DNA from: Synechococcales cyanobacterium GL140_1_metabinner_5_sub
GTDB taxonomy: Bacteria > Cyanobacteriota > Cyanobacteriia > Cyanobacteriales > Chamaesiphonaceae
DNA length: 64,000 nucleotides
Assembly (NCBI GenBank): GCA_025359065.1
Contig: JANYHM010000040.1
Span: 1 to 64,000, forward strand
Reading direction: 5' to 3'
The notes beneath the pieces were generated by a model, which saw nothing but the letters and a program-made list of their open reading frames with translations, was not told the DNA's origin and did not search any database. The translations under genes were made by a program, and so were the position numbers. The first letter of the stretch is position 1, and every line of letters starts with the position of its first letter. This document shows, piece by piece, positions 8,177-13,878 of this stretch.

Positions 8177-8404
8177 ATGATTTTAAACGAAACACAGTAT
8201 GACTTGACTAAAGCCAGCTTAGAGCATTTTCAAGATAGCGTCACAGAAATTGCGGCCTATGAACCAGCGATCGATAATCTCAACGAGCAACTGCGCCGAC
8301 AGTTACATCTTGACGCTGCCCAAAGCCAAGTTGCCATTTTGGTCGCAGAAATTGCTGTCTACGAGCAGCTTAAAACTGTTCAAGTGAATAAATTTGGAGA
8401 TTAA
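8177..8404 (+). CDS. Small helical protein resembling the N-terminus of HigA-type antitoxins
   Basis: 75 aa, predicted all-helical. The opening MILNETQYDLTKASLEHF and the ending LVAEIAVYEQLK resemble, from memory, the N-terminal arm of HigA/Xre-like regulators (IKNERQYRITKAQ..., ...LRAEIREYE). In those proteins a helix-turn-helix domain follows; here the protein stops at that point and no HTH is present. It may be a stand-alone arm, a truncated antitoxin or an unrelated small protein. The start is the ATG at 8177, 44 bp after the GFA gene; a longer frame from 8099 would overlap the GFA gene. No toxin gene is adjacent. Confidence 0.5.
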   Translation: MILNETQYDLTKASLEHFQDSVTEIAAYEPAIDNLNEQLRRQLHLDAAQSQVAILVAEIAVYEQLKTVQVNKFGD

Positions 8405-8560
8405 TGCCTTTCTATCTGTGGGTTACGACCGTCCAGATTCCCAATAACCTTGCACCAAAATTTCCATTAGGGATCTGTGATGTTCACCATTTGTTACCAT
8501 CGTCAACCGTAAAATATGTAAAGGTAATATTGATCGATGTCAGAAAAATAATTTAAAACC

Positions 8561-9145
8561 ATGGACTTTTCTAGCGTTCAGAACCTTGGCAGCAGCCTGC
8601 CCCTGATTTACCTCACCGCCTTCATCCTTTTGCTGGTAGGGTCTGCCGTGGTTGTCGGTAAACAAGTCCTCAAAAACCGCGTTCTAGAAAACGACCTCGG
8701 CAAACTAGAAAAAAGAGTCCTCGCTGATGACTGTACCGCCCAAGAATACTACGCTCTAGCCAGCATCTACTTAGATAAAAGACTATTTGTGCAGGCGGTT
8801 AAACTGCGGCAAAAAGTCCTGAAAAGCAAATCTGTTGATGCAGAATCTGAAGACAGTGTGATCGAAGCCGACAACTTCGCCCCTGTTCACAACGCCCTTG
8901 GCTACGCCTACGAATGACAAGAGCAATTCGACCTAGCCATCCGCAATTACAAAGAAGCCATCAAACAAGATCCCAGCTATGTCACGGCTATAAACAACTT
9001 GGGTCATGCCTATGAGCAAAAAAAACTCATGAGTCAATCCTTAGAAAGCTACGAACAAGCCCTGGCTCTTGAACCGAAAAACGAAACCGCCAACCGTCGG
9101 GTCACATCCCTGCGTCGTCGCCTAGTTACCACCACCAACAGTTAA
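8561..9145 (+). pseudogene. ycf37: Ycf37-like TPR protein interrupted by one in-frame TGA
   Basis: Read as one frame of 194 codons this is a Ycf37-like protein: an N-terminal membrane helix (LPLIYLTAFILLLVGSAVVVG, about residues 14-34), then TPR units including EYYALASIYLDKRLFVQAV, ALGYAYE-x-QEQFDLAIRNYK and INNLGHAYEQKKLMSQSLE. Ycf37 is a thylakoid protein involved in photosystem I assembly or stability. Codon 119 is TGA (8915-8917), inside the second TPR, and reading resumes in the same frame with full homology to the TAA at 9143. A single base change explains this, so it is either a recent nonsense mutation, a sequencing error or a readthrough site. Without readthrough the product is 118 aa and lacks most TPRs. 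Confidence 0.8.
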
Positions 9146-9190
9146 CGTGGTCGATCACATTTCAAAAACACAGGTTTAATCCTAATTGAC

Positions 9191-9229
9191 GAATAAATAT
9201 TTTGACCGAATCGGTCAGAATATTTATTC
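9191..9229. terminator. Long AT-rich hairpin downstream of ycf37
   Basis: GAATAAATATTTTGACCGA at 9191-9209 mirrors TCGGTCAGAATATTTATTC at 9211-9229, a 19-bp stem with one wobble pair and almost no loop. It lies 45 bp past the ycf37 stop, just before the inverted-repeat element at 9232. It could act as a bidirectional terminator or be the end of a mobile element. Confidence 0.5.
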
Positions 9230-9231
9230 TG

Positions 9232-9355
9232 ACAGCAATTCTAAATTCAAACATTCTGTGACCTAAAAGGTCGAGTGTTCATGCTAATCAATCTCCTCTA
9301 GAGGTTACGTGATGATTGGAATGACCTAAACTGGTTGTGAATTTAGAATTGCTGT
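9232..9355. mobile_element. MITE-like element, 124 bp, 18-bp terminal inverted repeats
   Basis: ACAGCAATTCTAAATTCA (9232-9249) and its exact complement (9338-9355) bound a 124-bp segment with no coding capacity. Terminal inverted repeats of this size around a short non-coding core fit a miniature inverted-repeat transposable element moved by a transposase elsewhere. A target duplication is not obvious by eye. Confidence 0.6.
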
Positions 9356-9450
9356 TATAGCGGTTCCGGCTCGAATGTGGTGTGAGTGATTGTTGCCTAG
9401 CAAGGCTTAAAGCTACTTGAATTTATTTCATCCGAGGTAGAACCGCTATA
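9356..9450. mobile_element. MITE-like element, 95 bp, 11-bp terminal inverted repeats
   Basis: TATAGCGGTTC (9356-9366) is perfectly mirrored by GAACCGCTATA (9440-9450). Pairing resumes a few bases inward (CTCG with CGAG). The flanking TA at each end would suit a TA-targeting (IS630/Tc1-like) element. It directly abuts the 124-bp element, so two small elements lie head to tail. Confidence 0.6.
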
Positions 9451-9638
9451 TCATGCAATGATTTGGTGAATGAGATAAAATTTAACCCTAACACTCATTC
9501 TTAAATACTGTTGATCATTAATCAAAGTTCGATCACAGATACATAGAAACATTTGTGAATTTTGCTCTACTGGCAGAACCTCAATACAACTGGCGATGAA
9601 TCTATCAATAGTTATAGTTATGATGAGTCTAATTGAGA
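9451..9638. other. Non-coding gap before the accessory operon
   Basis: AT-rich sequence between the MITE-like pair and the stop of the 187-aa gene. I see no ORF, tRNA or clear terminator in it. HIP1 cores are absent, as in the rest of the island. Confidence 0.5.
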
Positions 9639-10202
9639 TTAATTATCCTTCGAATTTTCGGATACTTGAGATTTCCCATATTTTTCAATCCACTCATTAG
9701 CTTTCTTTATATGTTTTTCACCACTTACTTCACCAACATATTTTTTTACTATACTCAGCATACTTGTCTCAGTTTTTGAATCTGAAATTTTTGGGAATCG
9801 TCTAATTTCTCCATTACAACGTAAGAATAATTCGATTGAGGTAATTATATTTGTTGATTCAACATCAAGTAACTCATGATGAAGATTCCCAACAGAAGGC
9901 AATGGAAATTGAGAGTTGGGGACATGGACAATATTAATCGGTGAGTTTTCAAAGCAGCATTTGTTAAGCCCAATAAATTCTACTCTGTCAAGACTTCCTT
10001 TGCACAACACAAAACCAAGTGCAATTTTTTCTAATTCCTCATTATTCGATGACTTCCATATTGAGGGAAATCCTTTTCCTGTTGTCATATGACTTAGGTA
10101 TGCGCTCTTTTCAACATCAGGGGGGAAAGATTTTATATCTTTCCCCTTTCTCCAGATATCTGAACTTTTACTCAGGCTTCGATAATAAAGAAACTGCTCC
10201 AC
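9639..10202 (-). CDS. Unknown protein, third gene of the TIGR04255-type operon
   Basis: 187 aa, not recognised. The start is a GTG at 10202, three bases after the stop of the preceding gene, so it is translationally tied to it. The body looks like a mixed alpha/beta fold with an NxPINIVHVPNSQFPLPSVGNLHHELLD-like central part, a pair of adjacent cysteines (NKCCFE) and a Lys/Glu-rich helical tail (HIKKANEWIEKYGK). There is no signal peptide or membrane segment. Its only clue to function is its fixed position behind the TIGR04255-type gene and the HEAT-like gene. Confidence 0.7.
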   Translation of the reverse strand: MEQFLYYRSLSKSSDIWRKGKDIKSFPPDVEKSAYLSHMTTGKGFPSIWKSSNNEELEKIALGFVLCKGSLDRVEFIGLNKCCFENSPINIVHVPNSQFPLPSVGNLHHELLDVESTNIITSIELFLRCNGEIRRFPKISDSKTETSMLSIVKKYVGEVSGEKHIKKANEWIEKYGKSQVSENSKDN

Positions 10203-10205
10203 AAA

Positions 10206-10781
10206 TTAAAGGGACTCCAAATAATCGAGGACGTATCCAGGCTCTTCATTTTTTAGCAAGTCATTTGCTTCTTCTAATAATAAACCCGCAATAGAAACTA
10301 TCCCCAATCCAGCCGCAATAACATCTAAAGCTGCATATCTCAGACTAGTGGATGAGGACTTTAATAAATTTCGGACGATGAGTTGTATGTCATCAGAGTA
10401 TGCAGAATTTTCAATTAGTGCCTCTAAAAGACTTGCTAATGCTACTAAAATCAATTGAGCTGATTTCTCGCTCTGGGCAATAAGTTGCTTGTTGCAATTA
10501 AAAATTCCTTTAAGTAGATTCATTTCTTGTTCCGATAAAGCAGTATTACCTTTGAGTAAGTCATCTCTCAGATCTTCTACTCTTCTTTCCAATTGAGCAA
10601 CATCAGAGCTTGCAAGAAGATATTGAATTTCAGTACGCTCTTGATACTTTATTTGTGCTTCAACTTGTTTGTATTCATCGCTTTCACCTCTACTGGAGCT
10701 TATAGTAACTCTATAGATACCTGATTTTGTGGCTGTCCGAATAGGACTTTGCACAGTAGTTAAACGCTCTGAGACAGTCAT
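10206..10781 (-). CDS. Unknown helical protein, second gene of the TIGR04255-type operon
   Basis: 191 aa, not recognised. After a basic, Ser/Thr-rich N-terminus, residues 35-95 are charged and likely coiled-coil (QLERRVEDLRDDLLKGNTAL). The second half is hydrophobic-helical (LILVALASLLEALIEN, then LRYAALDVIAAGLGIVSIAG) and could be HEAT-like repeats or a weakly membrane-inserting hairpin. The ATG at 10781 overlaps the upstream stop in ATGA, so translation is coupled to the 254-aa gene. It is AT-rich and HIP1-free like its neighbours. Confidence 0.7.
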   Translation of the reverse strand: MTVSERLTTVQSPIRTATKSGIYRVTISSSRGESDEYKQVEAQIKYQERTEIQYLLASSDVAQLERRVEDLRDDLLKGNTALSEQEMNLLKGIFNCNKQLIAQSEKSAQLILVALASLLEALIENSAYSDDIQLIVRNLLKSSSTSLRYAALDVIAAGLGIVSIAGLLLEEANDLLKNEEPGYVLDYLESL

Positions 10782-11542
10782 TTTAAAAGCTCCTGTGTTT
10801 TTTCAGTGATACCATTTAAGAATATATCATTTTTGAATGGTCGTAAGTTGTTGATAAAAATGGATTTGATGGAAATGTCTTGAGTGTCAAGATTTACATC
10901 CTGAAAGACCTCGATATCAAAAATCAAAGGGACATATTTTTGACCATCTTTTGACTCCATGTTTCCAATTGTTTGATTCACTATTGCCATAGAAGGTTTA
11001 TACCTTTCAGATGAAAGGGATATCTGCATGAAGTATCCAGAAATCGACATTGATAAGTCATCAGAAACTTCGGGAAATATTTTTATGTAGTCTTGCAGTT
11101 TCAATGGATTACCGTTGAAGGGTATTGATATTGAGTTTAGATAGCGCAACCCAAGACGCTTGACTCGACTAGCTGAGGTTACCTCCACATAATCAGCAAA
11201 AAATTCACTTGCTTCTTTATGGAAAGATTCCCATGTTTCATAGGGACACAATTTGCTAAAAGAGAAATTATCTACGTCAGATTGAATAACTTTTGTACTA
11301 TCATCAGAAGTTAAACGATGACCTTGCAGAACATTACTGATGGAAGAATTTATATTGTGTGGATCGTCAGTACGGAAAGATATTTCATTCTTGAGAAACC
11401 TTCGCTCTTCTCCATTGAAGGTAGGAAAATTTTCAGTGATGTAGCTAGCATATTCATTCAACTTCTCATAGTCAAACTCACCTTCACGTTCTACAACGAC
11501 ATGAAGTATGGCTTCAACAATTGGCGGCTTAGAGAGTTTCAT
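10778..11542 (-). CDS. TIGR04255-type protein, first gene of the operon
   Basis: 254 aa. The start MKLSKPPIVEAILHVVVE, the central VKRLGLRYLNSISIP, and the end in which a late hydrophobic stretch leads to an NGITEKTQELL helix match, from memory, TIGR04255, described as a sporadically distributed family of unknown function. Members usually begin with pPivEaivei and finish with a helix of the form F-x-x-xT-x-K-x-x. There is no membrane segment or known catalytic motif. It is the first gene of a tightly packed three-gene minus-strand operon whose DNA is more AT-rich than its surroundings. The patchy distribution and island setting suggest horizontal transfer and perhaps a defence or conflict role, which is inference. 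Confidence 0.7.
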   Translation of the reverse strand: MKLSKPPIVEAILHVVVEREGEFDYEKLNEYASYITENFPTFNGEERRFLKNEISFRTDDPHNINSSISNVLQGHRLTSDDSTKVIQSDVDNFSFSKLCPYETWESFHKEASEFFADYVEVTSASRVKRLGLRYLNSISIPFNGNPLKLQDYIKIFPEVSDDLSMSISGYFMQISLSSERYKPSMAIVNQTIGNMESKDGQKYVPLIFDIEVFQDVNLDTQDISIKSIFINNLRPFKNDIFLNGITEKTQELLK

Positions 11543-12258
11543 TACTTATTTACTGGAAAAGCATCTAAATTTATACATACTAAACACCTTAACAATTAAG
11601 ATAAAGCTTACAGCAGTTTTTGTCAACAGTACATTCATATTGGAGGCTTTTATCCAAGAAAAGCATAGAACACTTCAAACATGTCACCAGAAAATTAGAT
11701 TTATGGATCAAGATAAGGTATTTTACTGTTCACACAAGCATATTTTTCACCTATCTAACTGCTTTGAGCCTCAACCTTAACACACAGCCTGGATAAATGG
11801 AAAGCGATCAATGTATAACTGAGTGTCCAAGAGGTTACCTACTCAATGTTCCCATTTTAGTTCACGGAAGTGTCATGCGACAAAGCAATCCTTTTGCGTA
11901 GCGTTAATTATTTGTATCTTTGTTGTTTATGGCGGAGTTGGAGTTCTTGATTGCCGCTTGGTTGTATATCTCGATCATATCTCTTCGCTTCAGTCTTTGA
12001 CATCATTGGCCTCCGATCAATACAATATTTCATACAGCGGGTGGGAATGCCGACTAACAACACTCCTTACCGGAACCCCATACATTACGTTTTCAAAGCA
12101 CTATCTTGTTTCGCTTTTCTTGCCAGAAAACCCGACAGGCACAAGTTTCTGGATACTTGCAGTGTGTATTACCGCCACCTTGTCTATGTATTGTTTAACC
12201 CCATTCCCTTTATCAAAAACTGCTACCGCACTCTAATCAGATCAATTCGGAGATTTAG
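11543..12258. other. Gap of about 700 bp between the island operon and the exporter
   Basis: AT-rich stretch between divergent transcription units. It should contain the promoter of the TIGR04255-type operon at its left end and that of the exporter at its right. Several overlapping open frames exist (from 11508, 11823 and 11951), but only the 11823 frame looks even slightly like a protein. I see no tRNA, transposase remains or terminator. Confidence 0.45.
11823..12236 (+). CDS. Doubtful small membrane protein upstream of the exporter
   Basis: 137 codons from a GTG. Two hydrophobic stretches are seen: FCVALIICIFVVYGGVGVL near residue 25 and SFWILAVCITATLSMYCL near residue 110. It ends 22 bp before the exporter gene, which could mean co-transcription. 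Against it: the start is weak, a second frame of 125 codons overlaps it, and the composition (many Cys, Ser and Thr) is not typical of the region's real genes. Treat it as a hypothesis; it may be chance. Confidence 0.22.
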   Translation: MSKRLPTQCSHFSSRKCHATKQSFCVALIICIFVVYGGVGVLDCRLVVYLDHISSLQSLTSLASDQYNISYSGWECRLTTLLTGTPYITFSKHYLVSLFLPENPTGTSFWILAVCITATLSMYCLTPFPLSKTATAL

Positions 12259-13878
12259 ATGGAAATTCTTTGGTTACTGCTCAAAGCATCTTGGCGCGGT
12301 ATGGCAGCAGCGATCGGCATGGGTCTGATCAGTGGAGCCAGCAGCGCTGCTTTAATTGCCCTTGTCAGCCGCGCCACCAGCGGTATTGCTGCCGATATGC
12401 TATGGCCATTTGTAGGCTTGGCGATCGTTTCTTTAGTTACCGGATTGGGTTCACAGTTCATGCTGATTCAGCTTGCCCAAGACTCCATTCACGATTTGCG
12501 CATGAGCTTGAGCGCCAGGATTCTGGCTGCGCCTTTAGCCAAAATTGAAGAGCTAGGAGCCAGTAAGCTCTTGGCGACTCTGACTGACGATGTGGCCATG
12601 TTATCCAATACTATTGCCGTAATTCCTTTTTTGTGTATTGACTTAGCAATTATTGGTAGTTGCTTAACCTATCTCGCGGTGCTGTCTGGTGCGGTATTTT
12701 TGGTAACAATTGTGCTGATGATTATTAGCATTGTGATTGTGCAAATTGCGATCGCCAAGGCTAACAATCTTTTTTATGGAGCGCGAGAAGAAAACGATCG
12801 ACTGCTGAAGCATTTTCAGGCAATCACCGACGGCATCAAAGAACTCAAACTCAATCGCTTACGCCAAAATGACTTTTTAAATAACGAGCTACAGATCAGC
12901 GCTGATATTTCCCGCACTCGCAATATCAAAGGGTTAAGGATCTTTGCCCTAACCGCGATCGTCGGTCAGGTAATTTTCTTCGGAATTTTAGGCGTGTTGA
13001 TTTTTGGTTCAAAAGACTGGTTGACTTTAAATTCCACCACTCTAAGCGCCTATGTGCTGACTTTGACTTATTTGATGACTCCCTTGCAAAATATGGTGCA
13101 ACGTCTACCCATGCTGGTAAGAGCCAATGTGGCGATCAAAAAAGTTGAGAGTATGGGGTTATCTCTGGCCGAAAGTAGCGAAATACCGCTGGCAGAACAT
13201 GCTGCCCTACCCCACCAACTCGAAGTGCAATCTCTAGAACTGTCCCAAATTAATCATAGTTATAAAGGCAGCGACGGATCATTCTATTTAGGAGAAATTG
13301 ATCTGAAGTTTACAGCAAATGAATTGGTATTTATTGTCGGCGGTAATGGCAGCGGTAAATCTACTTTAGCTAAGATTCTTACTGGCTTATATGCTCCGGA
13401 AACTGGTGAGGTTAAGCTGAATAGTCAAAGCATCAACAATGCTAATCGAGACTGGTACCGACAGCATTTTGCCGTAGTATTTGTAGATTTTTACTTGTTT
13501 GAAAAGCTGTTGGGCTTGAACCCGGCCACCGTGGATGCCGAAGCCAACAAGTATTTAGAGCTATTGCAGATTGCCCACAAAGTGCAAATCAAAGATAGTT
13601 ACTTATCTACAGTAGATTTATCTCAAGGGCAGCGGAAGCGGTTGGCGCTACTAACGGCTTATTTGGACGATCGACCAATTTATTTGTTCGATGAGTGGGC
13701 AGCAGACCAAGACCCAGTATTCAGAGATATTTTTTATCGGGAGCTATTGCCAGCGCTCAAACGCCGGGGCAAAATGATTTTTGCCATTAGCCACGACGAT
13801 CGCTATTTCCACTTGGCCGATCGAGTAATTAAGCTAGATTATGGCCAAGTAGAAAGAGATTATGTTCCCAGTAATTAG
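12259..13878 (+). CDS. PvdE/SyrD/YojI-type peptide or siderophore ABC exporter
   Basis: 539 aa, half-transporter with six membrane helices in residues 1-290 and a C-terminal ATPase. Walker A is GGNGSGKST (about residue 363), the signature is LSQGQRKRLAL in place of LSGGQ, and Walker B is IYLFDEWAADQDP, where the usual DEAT/DEPT is replaced by DEWA, as in the cyclic-peptide exporter family (PvdE, SyrD, YojI). These export peptides or peptide siderophore precursors across the inner membrane as homodimers. A GGAG ribosome site precedes the ATG at 12259. No peptide synthetase or recognisable precursor is beside it, so the cargo is unknown. Confidence 0.88.
   Translation: MEILWLLLKASWRGMAAAIGMGLISGASSAALIALVSRATSGIAADMLWPFVGLAIVSLVTGLGSQFMLIQLAQDSIHDLRMSLSARILAAPLAKIEELGASKLLATLTDDVAMLSNTIAVIPFLCIDLAIIGSCLTYLAVLSGAVFLVTIVLMIISIVIVQIAIAKANNLFYGAREENDRLLKHFQAITDGIKELKLNRLRQNDFLNNELQISADISRTRNIKGLRIFALTAIVGQVIFFGILGVLIFGSKDWLTLNSTTLSAYVLTLTYLMTPLQNMVQRLPMLVRANVAIKKVESMGLSLAESSEIPLAEHAALPHQLEVQSLELSQINHSYKGSDGSFYLGEIDLKFTANELVFIVGGNGSGKSTLAKILTGLYAPETGEVKLNSQSINNANRDWYRQHFAVVFVDFYLFEKLLGLNPATVDAEANKYLELLQIAHKVQIKDSYLSTVDLSQGQRKRLALLTAYLDDRPIYLFDEWAADQDPVFRDIFYRELLPALKRRGKMIFAISHDDRYFHLADRVIKLDYGQVERDYVPSN

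What the first reader, a model, noticed from the sequence alone, without database searches (positions are those of the whole stretch)
9639..11542. Three-gene AT-rich operon led by a TIGR04255-type gene: candidate uncharacterised conflict system
Three minus-strand genes (254, 191 and 187 aa) are packed with an ATGA overlap and a 3-bp gap, so they are almost certainly made together. The first looks like the TIGR04255 family, known for patchy distribution and no assigned function. The second has a coiled-coil part and a hydrophobic HEAT-like part, the third is unrecognised. The block is more AT-rich than its flanks, and I find no HIP1 core CGATCG by eye from about 8272 to 12312, although elsewhere it occurs every few hundred bases. 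Two MITE-like elements border it. A sporadic, co-translated, foreign-looking set of unknown proteins is what an undescribed defence or toxin-type cassette looks like. The role is inference.
Basis: partly seen in the sequence, partly recalled or inferred. Interest (0 to 1): 0.8.

Follow-up and report, generated by a model that had tools for sequence, protein, structure and literature searches.

The report
Modular three-gene TIGR04255 conflict cassette
A mobile three-gene cassette in a cyanobacterium turns out to be one member of a wide set of cassettes that keep the same first gene but swap the other two, often for toxin-like proteins, and phages carry loose pieces of the middle gene, so this looks like an undescribed modular bacterial conflict system.

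Summary
The cassette is real. Three AT-rich genes, TIGR04255 (104 bits) plus two unrecognised proteins, recur in the same order and with the same 4-bp overlap in all 8 cyanobacterial genomes found that carry gene 3, one of them on a mobilisable plasmid. The bigger result is general. Of 57 TIGR04255 loci examined, 55 head a tight three-gene operon. TIGR04255 is the constant part. The third gene belongs to at least ten unrelated classes, including HEPN, PIN, zeta-toxin and MBL-fold proteins. On the TIGR04255 tree the third gene has been swapped several times with strong support. In one clear chimera the N-half of the middle protein tracks TIGR04255 and its C-half tracks the third gene. Phage contigs carry C-parts of middle genes without the other two genes. 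One phage carries parts of three types, including the window's. Best reading: a tripartite toxin-antitoxin-like conflict module, with the third gene as effector, the middle as two-ended antitoxin/adaptor and TIGR04255 as shared sensor or stabiliser. It resembles toxin-antitoxin-chaperone systems, but no SecB match was found. Both structure predictions failed, nothing was tested at the bench, and the activity of the window's gene 3 is unknown.

The parts
10778..11542 (-). gene 1: TIGR04255 family protein, 254 aa; the constant component of the module (proposed shared sensor or stabiliser)
   Evidence: NCBIfam TIGR04255 E 8.5e-30, 104.4 bits, profile 1-252/252; heads 55 of 57 three-gene operons examined
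10206..10781 (-). gene 2: middle protein, 191 aa; proposed two-ended antitoxin/adaptor. Variable N-part (about 1-60), conserved helical C-part (about 60-191)
   Evidence: ATGA overlap with gene 1 kept in all 8 cassettes; conserved C-part in alignment A6; the C-part recurs in a phage ORF (27-38% identity to the eight class members, L134); no family hit
9639..10202 (-). gene 3: class-specific third protein, 187 aa, GTG start; proposed effector of unknown activity. Residues kept in both the near and the distant relatives: R8, W17, S47, W49, H108
   Evidence: co-occurs with gene 2 in 8/8 genomes; weak match to phrog_10743 (E 0.0013), shared by distant third genes of other TIGR04255 operons; profile match to those E 6.6e-4
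10778..10781 (-). 4-bp ATGA overlap of genes 1 and 2 (translational coupling)
   Evidence: sequence; gap of -4 in all eight cassettes of this class
9353..9453 (.). MITE-like element, 25-bp arms, downstream of the cassette
   Evidence: inverted repeat; further copies at 74-99% identity in the same genome
9232..9355 (.). second MITE-like element, 18-bp perfect inverted ends, abutting the first
   Evidence: inverted repeat; further copies at 80-83% identity in the same genome
8274..12310 (.). stretch without HIP1 core CGATCG

Best explanation
The cassette is one class of a large, mobile, three-part conflict module that works like a toxin-antitoxin system with a third, shared component. Gene 3 is the effector slot, filled elsewhere by HEPN, PIN, zeta-toxin, MBL-fold or unknown proteins. 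Gene 2 is a two-ended antitoxin/adaptor: its C-terminal part fits the effector and its N-terminal part fits TIGR04255. Gene 1, TIGR04255, is the common part that holds gene 2 in its inhibiting state and most likely senses the trigger, probably phage infection, much as the chaperone CmdC does in CmdTAC. When TIGR04255 is drawn away, gene 2 lets go and the effector acts on the cell. Phages seem to answer by carrying the effector-facing parts of middle genes. Shown here: operon constancy, swapping of the third gene, one two-part middle protein, carriage by mobile elements, phage-borne middle fragments. Inferred: toxicity, neutralisation, sensing, direction of control, anti-phage role.
For: Genes 2 and 3 always travel together behind TIGR04255 (8/8), sporadically: 5 of 386 genomes in a phylum sample and 8 of 391 in an order sample; one copy is on mobilisable plasmid pCRI9333.03 beside a type I R-M system. 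55 of 57 TIGR04255 loci head tight three-gene operons. Third-gene domains: HEPN E 4.7e-8 and zeta toxin E 3.1e-12, PIN E 6.8e-11, MBL like Avs1a E 2.7e-8, PDC-M32B E 9.7e-6 and HEPN_IX E 1.7e-5. Third-gene swaps sit on branches with 99-100% bootstrap. L092 middle protein: residues 30-124 match middle proteins of its TIGR04255 sisters (z 7.6-9.5 for the best three), residues 151-270 match those that share its third gene (z 38-43). Same three-gene order on Sinorhizobium, Rhizobium, Sphingomonas, Kocuria and Chroococcidiopsis plasmids. Tailed-phage contig L134/L148 (portal E 2e-64, major head E 3e-67) carries C-parts of three middle-gene types and no TIGR04255 or third gene; L157, L158 and L159 carry one each.
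Against: No bench data. Gene 3 of the window has no recognised catalytic motif, and gene 2 has no known antitoxin domain. The N-half rule rests on one middle protein (L092); other sister pairs show no detectable N-part match, including L123 with the same TIGR04255 relatives. Many copies sit between housekeeping genes, not in defence islands. The HEPN proteins here read RN-x-A/C-D-Y, so a catalytic Rx4-6H motif is not confirmed. Both fold predictions failed (pLDDT 34.5 and 34.9). Phage copies of HTH-type middle proteins could serve as ordinary regulators.
Confidence: 0.6

Rival explanations
1. A plain addiction or stabilisation toxin-antitoxin module of plasmids and mobile elements, with no role against phages. 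TIGR04255 is a regulator or stabiliser only.
For: Plasmid carriage; toxin-like third genes; many chromosomal copies are not in defence islands.
Against: Phage contigs keep effector-facing middle parts without toxin or TIGR04255, which is hard to explain if phages gain nothing by neutralising the effector. MBL-type and PDC-M32B-like third genes resemble defence components.
Confidence: 0.18
2. A true toxin-antitoxin-chaperone (TAC) system: TIGR04255 is a divergent SecB-type chaperone that folds the middle antitoxin.
For: Same logic of one constant partner with swapped toxins and antitoxins. TAC antitoxins carry a separate, transferable chaperone-binding part (PMC5105189), as L092 may do here. 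The secondary structure of the poor model ends in strands followed by helices.
Against: None of 44 TIGR04255 proteins matches Pfam SecB, and no PDB sequence matches the profile. The TIGR04255-linked part of the middle protein is N-terminal, whereas the TAC chaperone-addiction part is C-terminal. At about 250 aa it is longer than SecB (own knowledge).
Confidence: 0.12
3. Roles reversed: TIGR04255 is the effector and the variable second and third genes are sensors that read different cues.
For: The constant component could in principle be the killing part; roles were not tested.
Against: Third genes include HEPN, PIN and zeta-toxin families, which act as toxins elsewhere. In Hymenobacter and Limnohabitans an F-class third gene sits behind a different first protein.
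Confidence: 0.07
4. A co-inherited metabolic or regulatory operon with no conflict role; AT-richness and patchiness only reflect horizontal transfer.
For: No known toxin domain in the window's own genes 2 and 3.
Against: Third-gene swapping among unrelated toxin-like domains and phage capture of middle fragments are not expected of metabolism.
Confidence: 0.1

Closest known systems
Toxin-antitoxin-chaperone (TAC) systems, in particular the anti-phage system CmdTAC (PMC11618068, PMC5105189)
   Same: Three co-expressed genes; one constant partner with varying toxin-antitoxin pairs; an antitoxin with a separable part for the constant partner; in CmdTAC the constant partner senses a phage protein.
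   Different: The constant partner is TIGR04255, with no detectable SecB match. It is the first gene rather than the last. The part linked to the constant partner appears N-terminal, not C-terminal.
Panacea/PanA (DUF4065) hyperpromiscuous antitoxin modules (PMC8832971)
   Same: One widespread domain paired with many unrelated toxins.
   Different: PanA systems are two-gene and PanA itself neutralises. Here the constant protein is separated from the effector by a class-specific middle protein.
PADLOC phage-defence candidate PDC-M32
   Same: One third-gene class (F, L053) matches PDC-M32B at E 9.7e-6.
   Different: The window's proteins match no PADLOC model. In the related pairs seen in Hymenobacter and Limnohabitans the first protein is not TIGR04255.
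omega-epsilon-zeta toxin-antitoxin systems
   Same: The Vibrio operon ends in a zeta toxin after two other genes.
   Different: The first gene is a 241-aa TIGR04255 protein, not the small omega repressor (own knowledge).
Phage-encoded antitoxin mimics such as the one countering DarTG (PMC11481870)
   Same: Phage gene resembling the antitoxin part of a host system.
   Different: Here the phage parts are C-terminal pieces of middle genes, in one phage from three system classes; neutralisation is untested.

Membership tests
TIGR04255 (NCBIfam) | score above the curated cut-off of 30 bits over the model | tested here: met
   104.4 bits, profile 1-252 of 252
Toxin-antitoxin-chaperone (TAC) | SecB-family chaperone as third component | tested here: not met
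   no SecB match among 44 TIGR04255 proteins; no PDB sequence match
Toxin-antitoxin-chaperone (TAC) | C-terminal chaperone-addiction region on the antitoxin | tested here: inconclusive
   one middle protein (L092) shows a two-part build, with the TIGR04255-linked part N-terminal
Type II toxin-antitoxin system | toxic protein neutralised by its partner | not testable with these tools
   needs expression assays
Type II toxin-antitoxin system | tight operon, mobile, sporadic, toxin-family domain | tested here: inconclusive
   operon, mobility and patchiness met; toxin families in sister operons but not in the window's own gene 3
Panacea/PanA (DUF4065) | DUF4065 domain in the constant protein | tested here: not met
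   no such Pfam hit
PDC-M32 (PADLOC) | match to PDC-M32A and PDC-M32B models | tested here: not met
   window proteins match no PADLOC model; only sister class F matches PDC-M32B
   no HEAT match in Pfam or NCBIfam; fold not obtained for gene 2
phrog_10743 (gene 3) | clear profile match | tested here: inconclusive
   E 0.0013 for the window protein, 0.00044-0.031 for relatives; consistent but weak

The most novel reading that the evidence does not exclude
TIGR04255 is the common sensor of a new superfamily of tripartite bacterial immune modules in which sensor (gene 1), two-ended adaptor/antitoxin (gene 2) and effector (gene 3) are exchanged independently across at least three phyla; phages defeat them by carrying pirated effector-facing halves of the adaptors, in one phage against three module classes at once.
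Probability: 0.35. Interest if true: 0.88.

Novelty: new variant of a known kind. Interest (0 to 1): 0.72.

Why it matters
TIGR04255 is a named family with no assigned function, and no paper in the searched open library of 5.39 million mentions it. The operon rule found here gives every TIGR04255 gene a partner pair and a testable role, predicts about a dozen new effector families, including the window's gene 3, and suggests which part of the middle protein faces which partner. If phage-borne middle fragments neutralise effectors, each is a ready reagent for identifying the effector's target and a marker of phages that have met the system.

Tried and rejected
A Foldseek search of the gene 1 model gave several START/Bet v1-type chains at E 0.19 or worse, which I do not use. 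PDB sequence searches: nothing for gene 1; chance hits for gene 3 (cyclin) and gene 2 (coiled-coil viral proteins). Homology of the window's gene 2 with middle proteins of the L110/L113/L116/L120 class was not supported (hhalign 0.057). A phage relative of gene 3 by tblastn: none. The one genome-contig scan returned a single relative. Empty-site test: ABC-transporter homologs in the family were located, but no matches to the window's other flanking genes were found beside them, so no clean pre-insertion site was shown. The PDC-M32A model could not be tested; a guessed accession was another PDC-M32B model. A shared short N-terminal motif in middle proteins of the Gfar/L119/L121 clade looked possible by eye but failed local-alignment tests.

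Full report
Observation. The three ORFs, their overlap and gap, and the TIGR04255 assignment are as described. The cassette is 35.6% GC in a 45.6% GC window and lies in a 4043-bp stretch without CGATCG, by far the longest in the window. The two MITE-like elements are real and repeated in the genome, but both lie downstream of gene 3, at 9232-9355 and 9353-9453. The upstream flank is unique and has no inverted repeat. Genes 2 and 3 match no Pfam, NCBIfam or PADLOC model; gene 3 has a weak match to phrog_10743.

The cassette as a unit. Searching genomes of the window's order and phylum, genes 2 and 3 were found in the same eight genomes, each time as TIGR04255 - gene 2 - gene 3 on one strand, with the 4-bp overlap of genes 1 and 2 kept in all eight. 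Protein identity to the window falls to 29-45% in the more distant five, yet the layout holds. Neighbours differ between the divergent genomes. One copy is on the mobilisable 50.8-kb plasmid pCRI9333.03 of Crinalium, next to a type I restriction-modification system. All eight are poorer in GC than their flanks and nearly or wholly free of HIP1.

The general rule. TIGR04255 occurs in 33 of 386 genomes of the phylum sample. I took 57 loci, including a Vibrio and a Thermus plasmid. In 55, TIGR04255 is the first of three tightly packed co-directional genes; the exceptions are one with no partner (L108) and one with a broken third gene (L098). One of the 55 (L112) has a disrupted TIGR04255 frame, so its operon is counted only by position. 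The third genes fall into many unrelated classes: two 'DCD' groups with motifs such as THDCDL or SQTCDI (A and B), the window class (Gnear), a distant relative (Gfar), three 'SVD...HA' groups (F1-F3), HEPN, PIN, zeta toxin, an MBL-fold protein like Avs1a, and singletons. Gnear and Gfar third genes match each other as profiles at 6.6e-4 and hit the same phrog_10743, so they are probably distant relatives.

Swapping. A maximum-likelihood tree of 54 TIGR04255 proteins carries third-gene classes that change on strongly supported branches. F1 (L092, L123) lies inside the DCD_B clade (100/96, 100/99) while F1 of L105 and L107 is far away. PIN (L119) is sister to DCD_B (L121, L126) at 100/100. PIN (L114) is sister to HEPN (L058, L109) at 100/100. 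F3 (L104) pairs with DCD_B (L059) at 100/100. F3 (L053) pairs with DCD_B (L057, L106) at 99/94. The minimum number of class changes is 16. Long branches exist, so single placements are less sure than the pattern.

The middle protein has two ends. When two operons share the third-gene class but have distant TIGR04255 proteins, their middle proteins match mainly from the centre to the C-terminus and not over the first part (31 pairs, with an exception among weak DCD_A matches). The reverse case, close TIGR04255 and different third gene, is seen clearly once. The L092 middle protein matches the middle proteins of its TIGR04255 sisters over residues 30-124 and those of L105 and L107, which share its third gene, over residues 151-270. 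This is direct sequence evidence for an adaptor with one end for each partner, but it is a single chimera, and L123 does not show the N-part match. In the window class, the C-part of gene 2 is the conserved part and the N-part varies, which fits.

Outside cyanobacteria. A DCD_A third gene used as a query found plasmids of Chroococcidiopsis, Sphingomonas, Sinorhizobium, Rhizobium and Kocuria. In all five inspected a TIGR04255 gene and a middle frame lie just upstream. An IMG/VR contig of proteobacterial type carries the full module between a repressor and a serine recombinase. F-class third genes in Hymenobacter and Limnohabitans follow a middle part with the F-type motif but a different first protein (DUF4209, or a fused N-terminal domain), so the first component may also be exchangeable; this rests on weak matches.

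Phage-borne middle fragments. Phage contig IMGVR_UViG_3300021061_000050 (portal, head protease, major head protein) carries two ORFs. One joins the last 43 residues of an L121-type middle protein (63% identity) to a window-type C-part (27-38%). The other joins a phage domain to residues 56-195 of an L124-type middle protein (93%). No TIGR04255 or third gene was found on the contig. Three more viral contigs carry a DCD_A-type middle C-part without the two other genes in the held stretch: L157 (92% identity to L093), L158 (49%), L159 (45-50%, fused to another domain). A fourth, L160, is cut by the contig end. Against 55 of 57 complete host operons this is a striking contrast. The simplest reading is that phages keep the effector-facing part as an antitoxin mimic, as described for DarTG (PMC11481870, abstract seen). 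Fragments, regulators and absence due to contig ends are the caveats.

Mechanism. I propose that gene 3 is the effector, gene 2 the antitoxin/adaptor and TIGR04255 the shared sensor or stabiliser, by analogy with CmdTAC, where phage capsid protein draws the chaperone CmdC away and the antitoxin is degraded (PMC11618068). Shown: constancy, swapping, the chimera, mobility, phage fragments. Inferred: toxicity, neutralisation, sensing, anti-phage role, and which end of gene 2 binds what. TIGR04255 gave no SecB match, so this is 'works like TAC', not 'is TAC'.

Literature. No paper in the searched open library mentions TIGR04255. Subscription papers, preprints and supplements were not searched, so earlier description under another name remains possible.

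Noticed in passing
window 8561-9145: TPR-type gene with an in-frame TGA at 8915-8917 and the rest of the frame open to 9145; a relative in L044 (15171-15644) is 51% identical over 166 residues. A pseudogene or a sequencing error in the window. In L044 it lies about 4 kb from that genome's own copy of the cassette.
   Followed up: partly
L134:151-771, L134:1000-2136 and L148 (IMGVR_UViG_3300021061_000050): Tailed-phage contig that carries C-terminal parts of three different middle-gene types, fused to each other or to a phage domain, without TIGR04255 or third gene.
   Followed up: yes
L159:593-2053: Viral-contig ORF of 486 aa that joins an apparent cell-wall-hydrolase-like part to a DCD_A-type middle protein.
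   Followed up: no
L155:1606-4405: Hymenobacter plasmid operon with DUF4209 protein, F-type middle protein and an F-class third frame not annotated as a gene: the first component is replaced.
   Followed up: partly
L063 (Thermus brockianus pTB1): TIGR04255-middle-HEPN operon lies near an Argonaute gene, a DNA methylase, a VapC gene and cas6.
   Followed up: no
L122:4480-6801: TIGR04255 operon whose third gene is an MBL-fold protein similar to Avs1a and the 6A-MBL anti-phage enzyme.
   Followed up: no
L053:5097-5462: Third gene matches PADLOC candidate PDC-M32B (E 9.7e-6), linking that candidate system to TIGR04255 operons.
   Followed up: partly
third genes of the DCD classes (e.g. L049:3147-3947, L095:5423-6262): Large family with a W-x-QGD/S-x-[LV] start and a [ST]x[DT]CD[LI] motif, no Pfam or NCBIfam match; one member matches phrog_34320 (E 3.8e-9).
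   Followed up: partly
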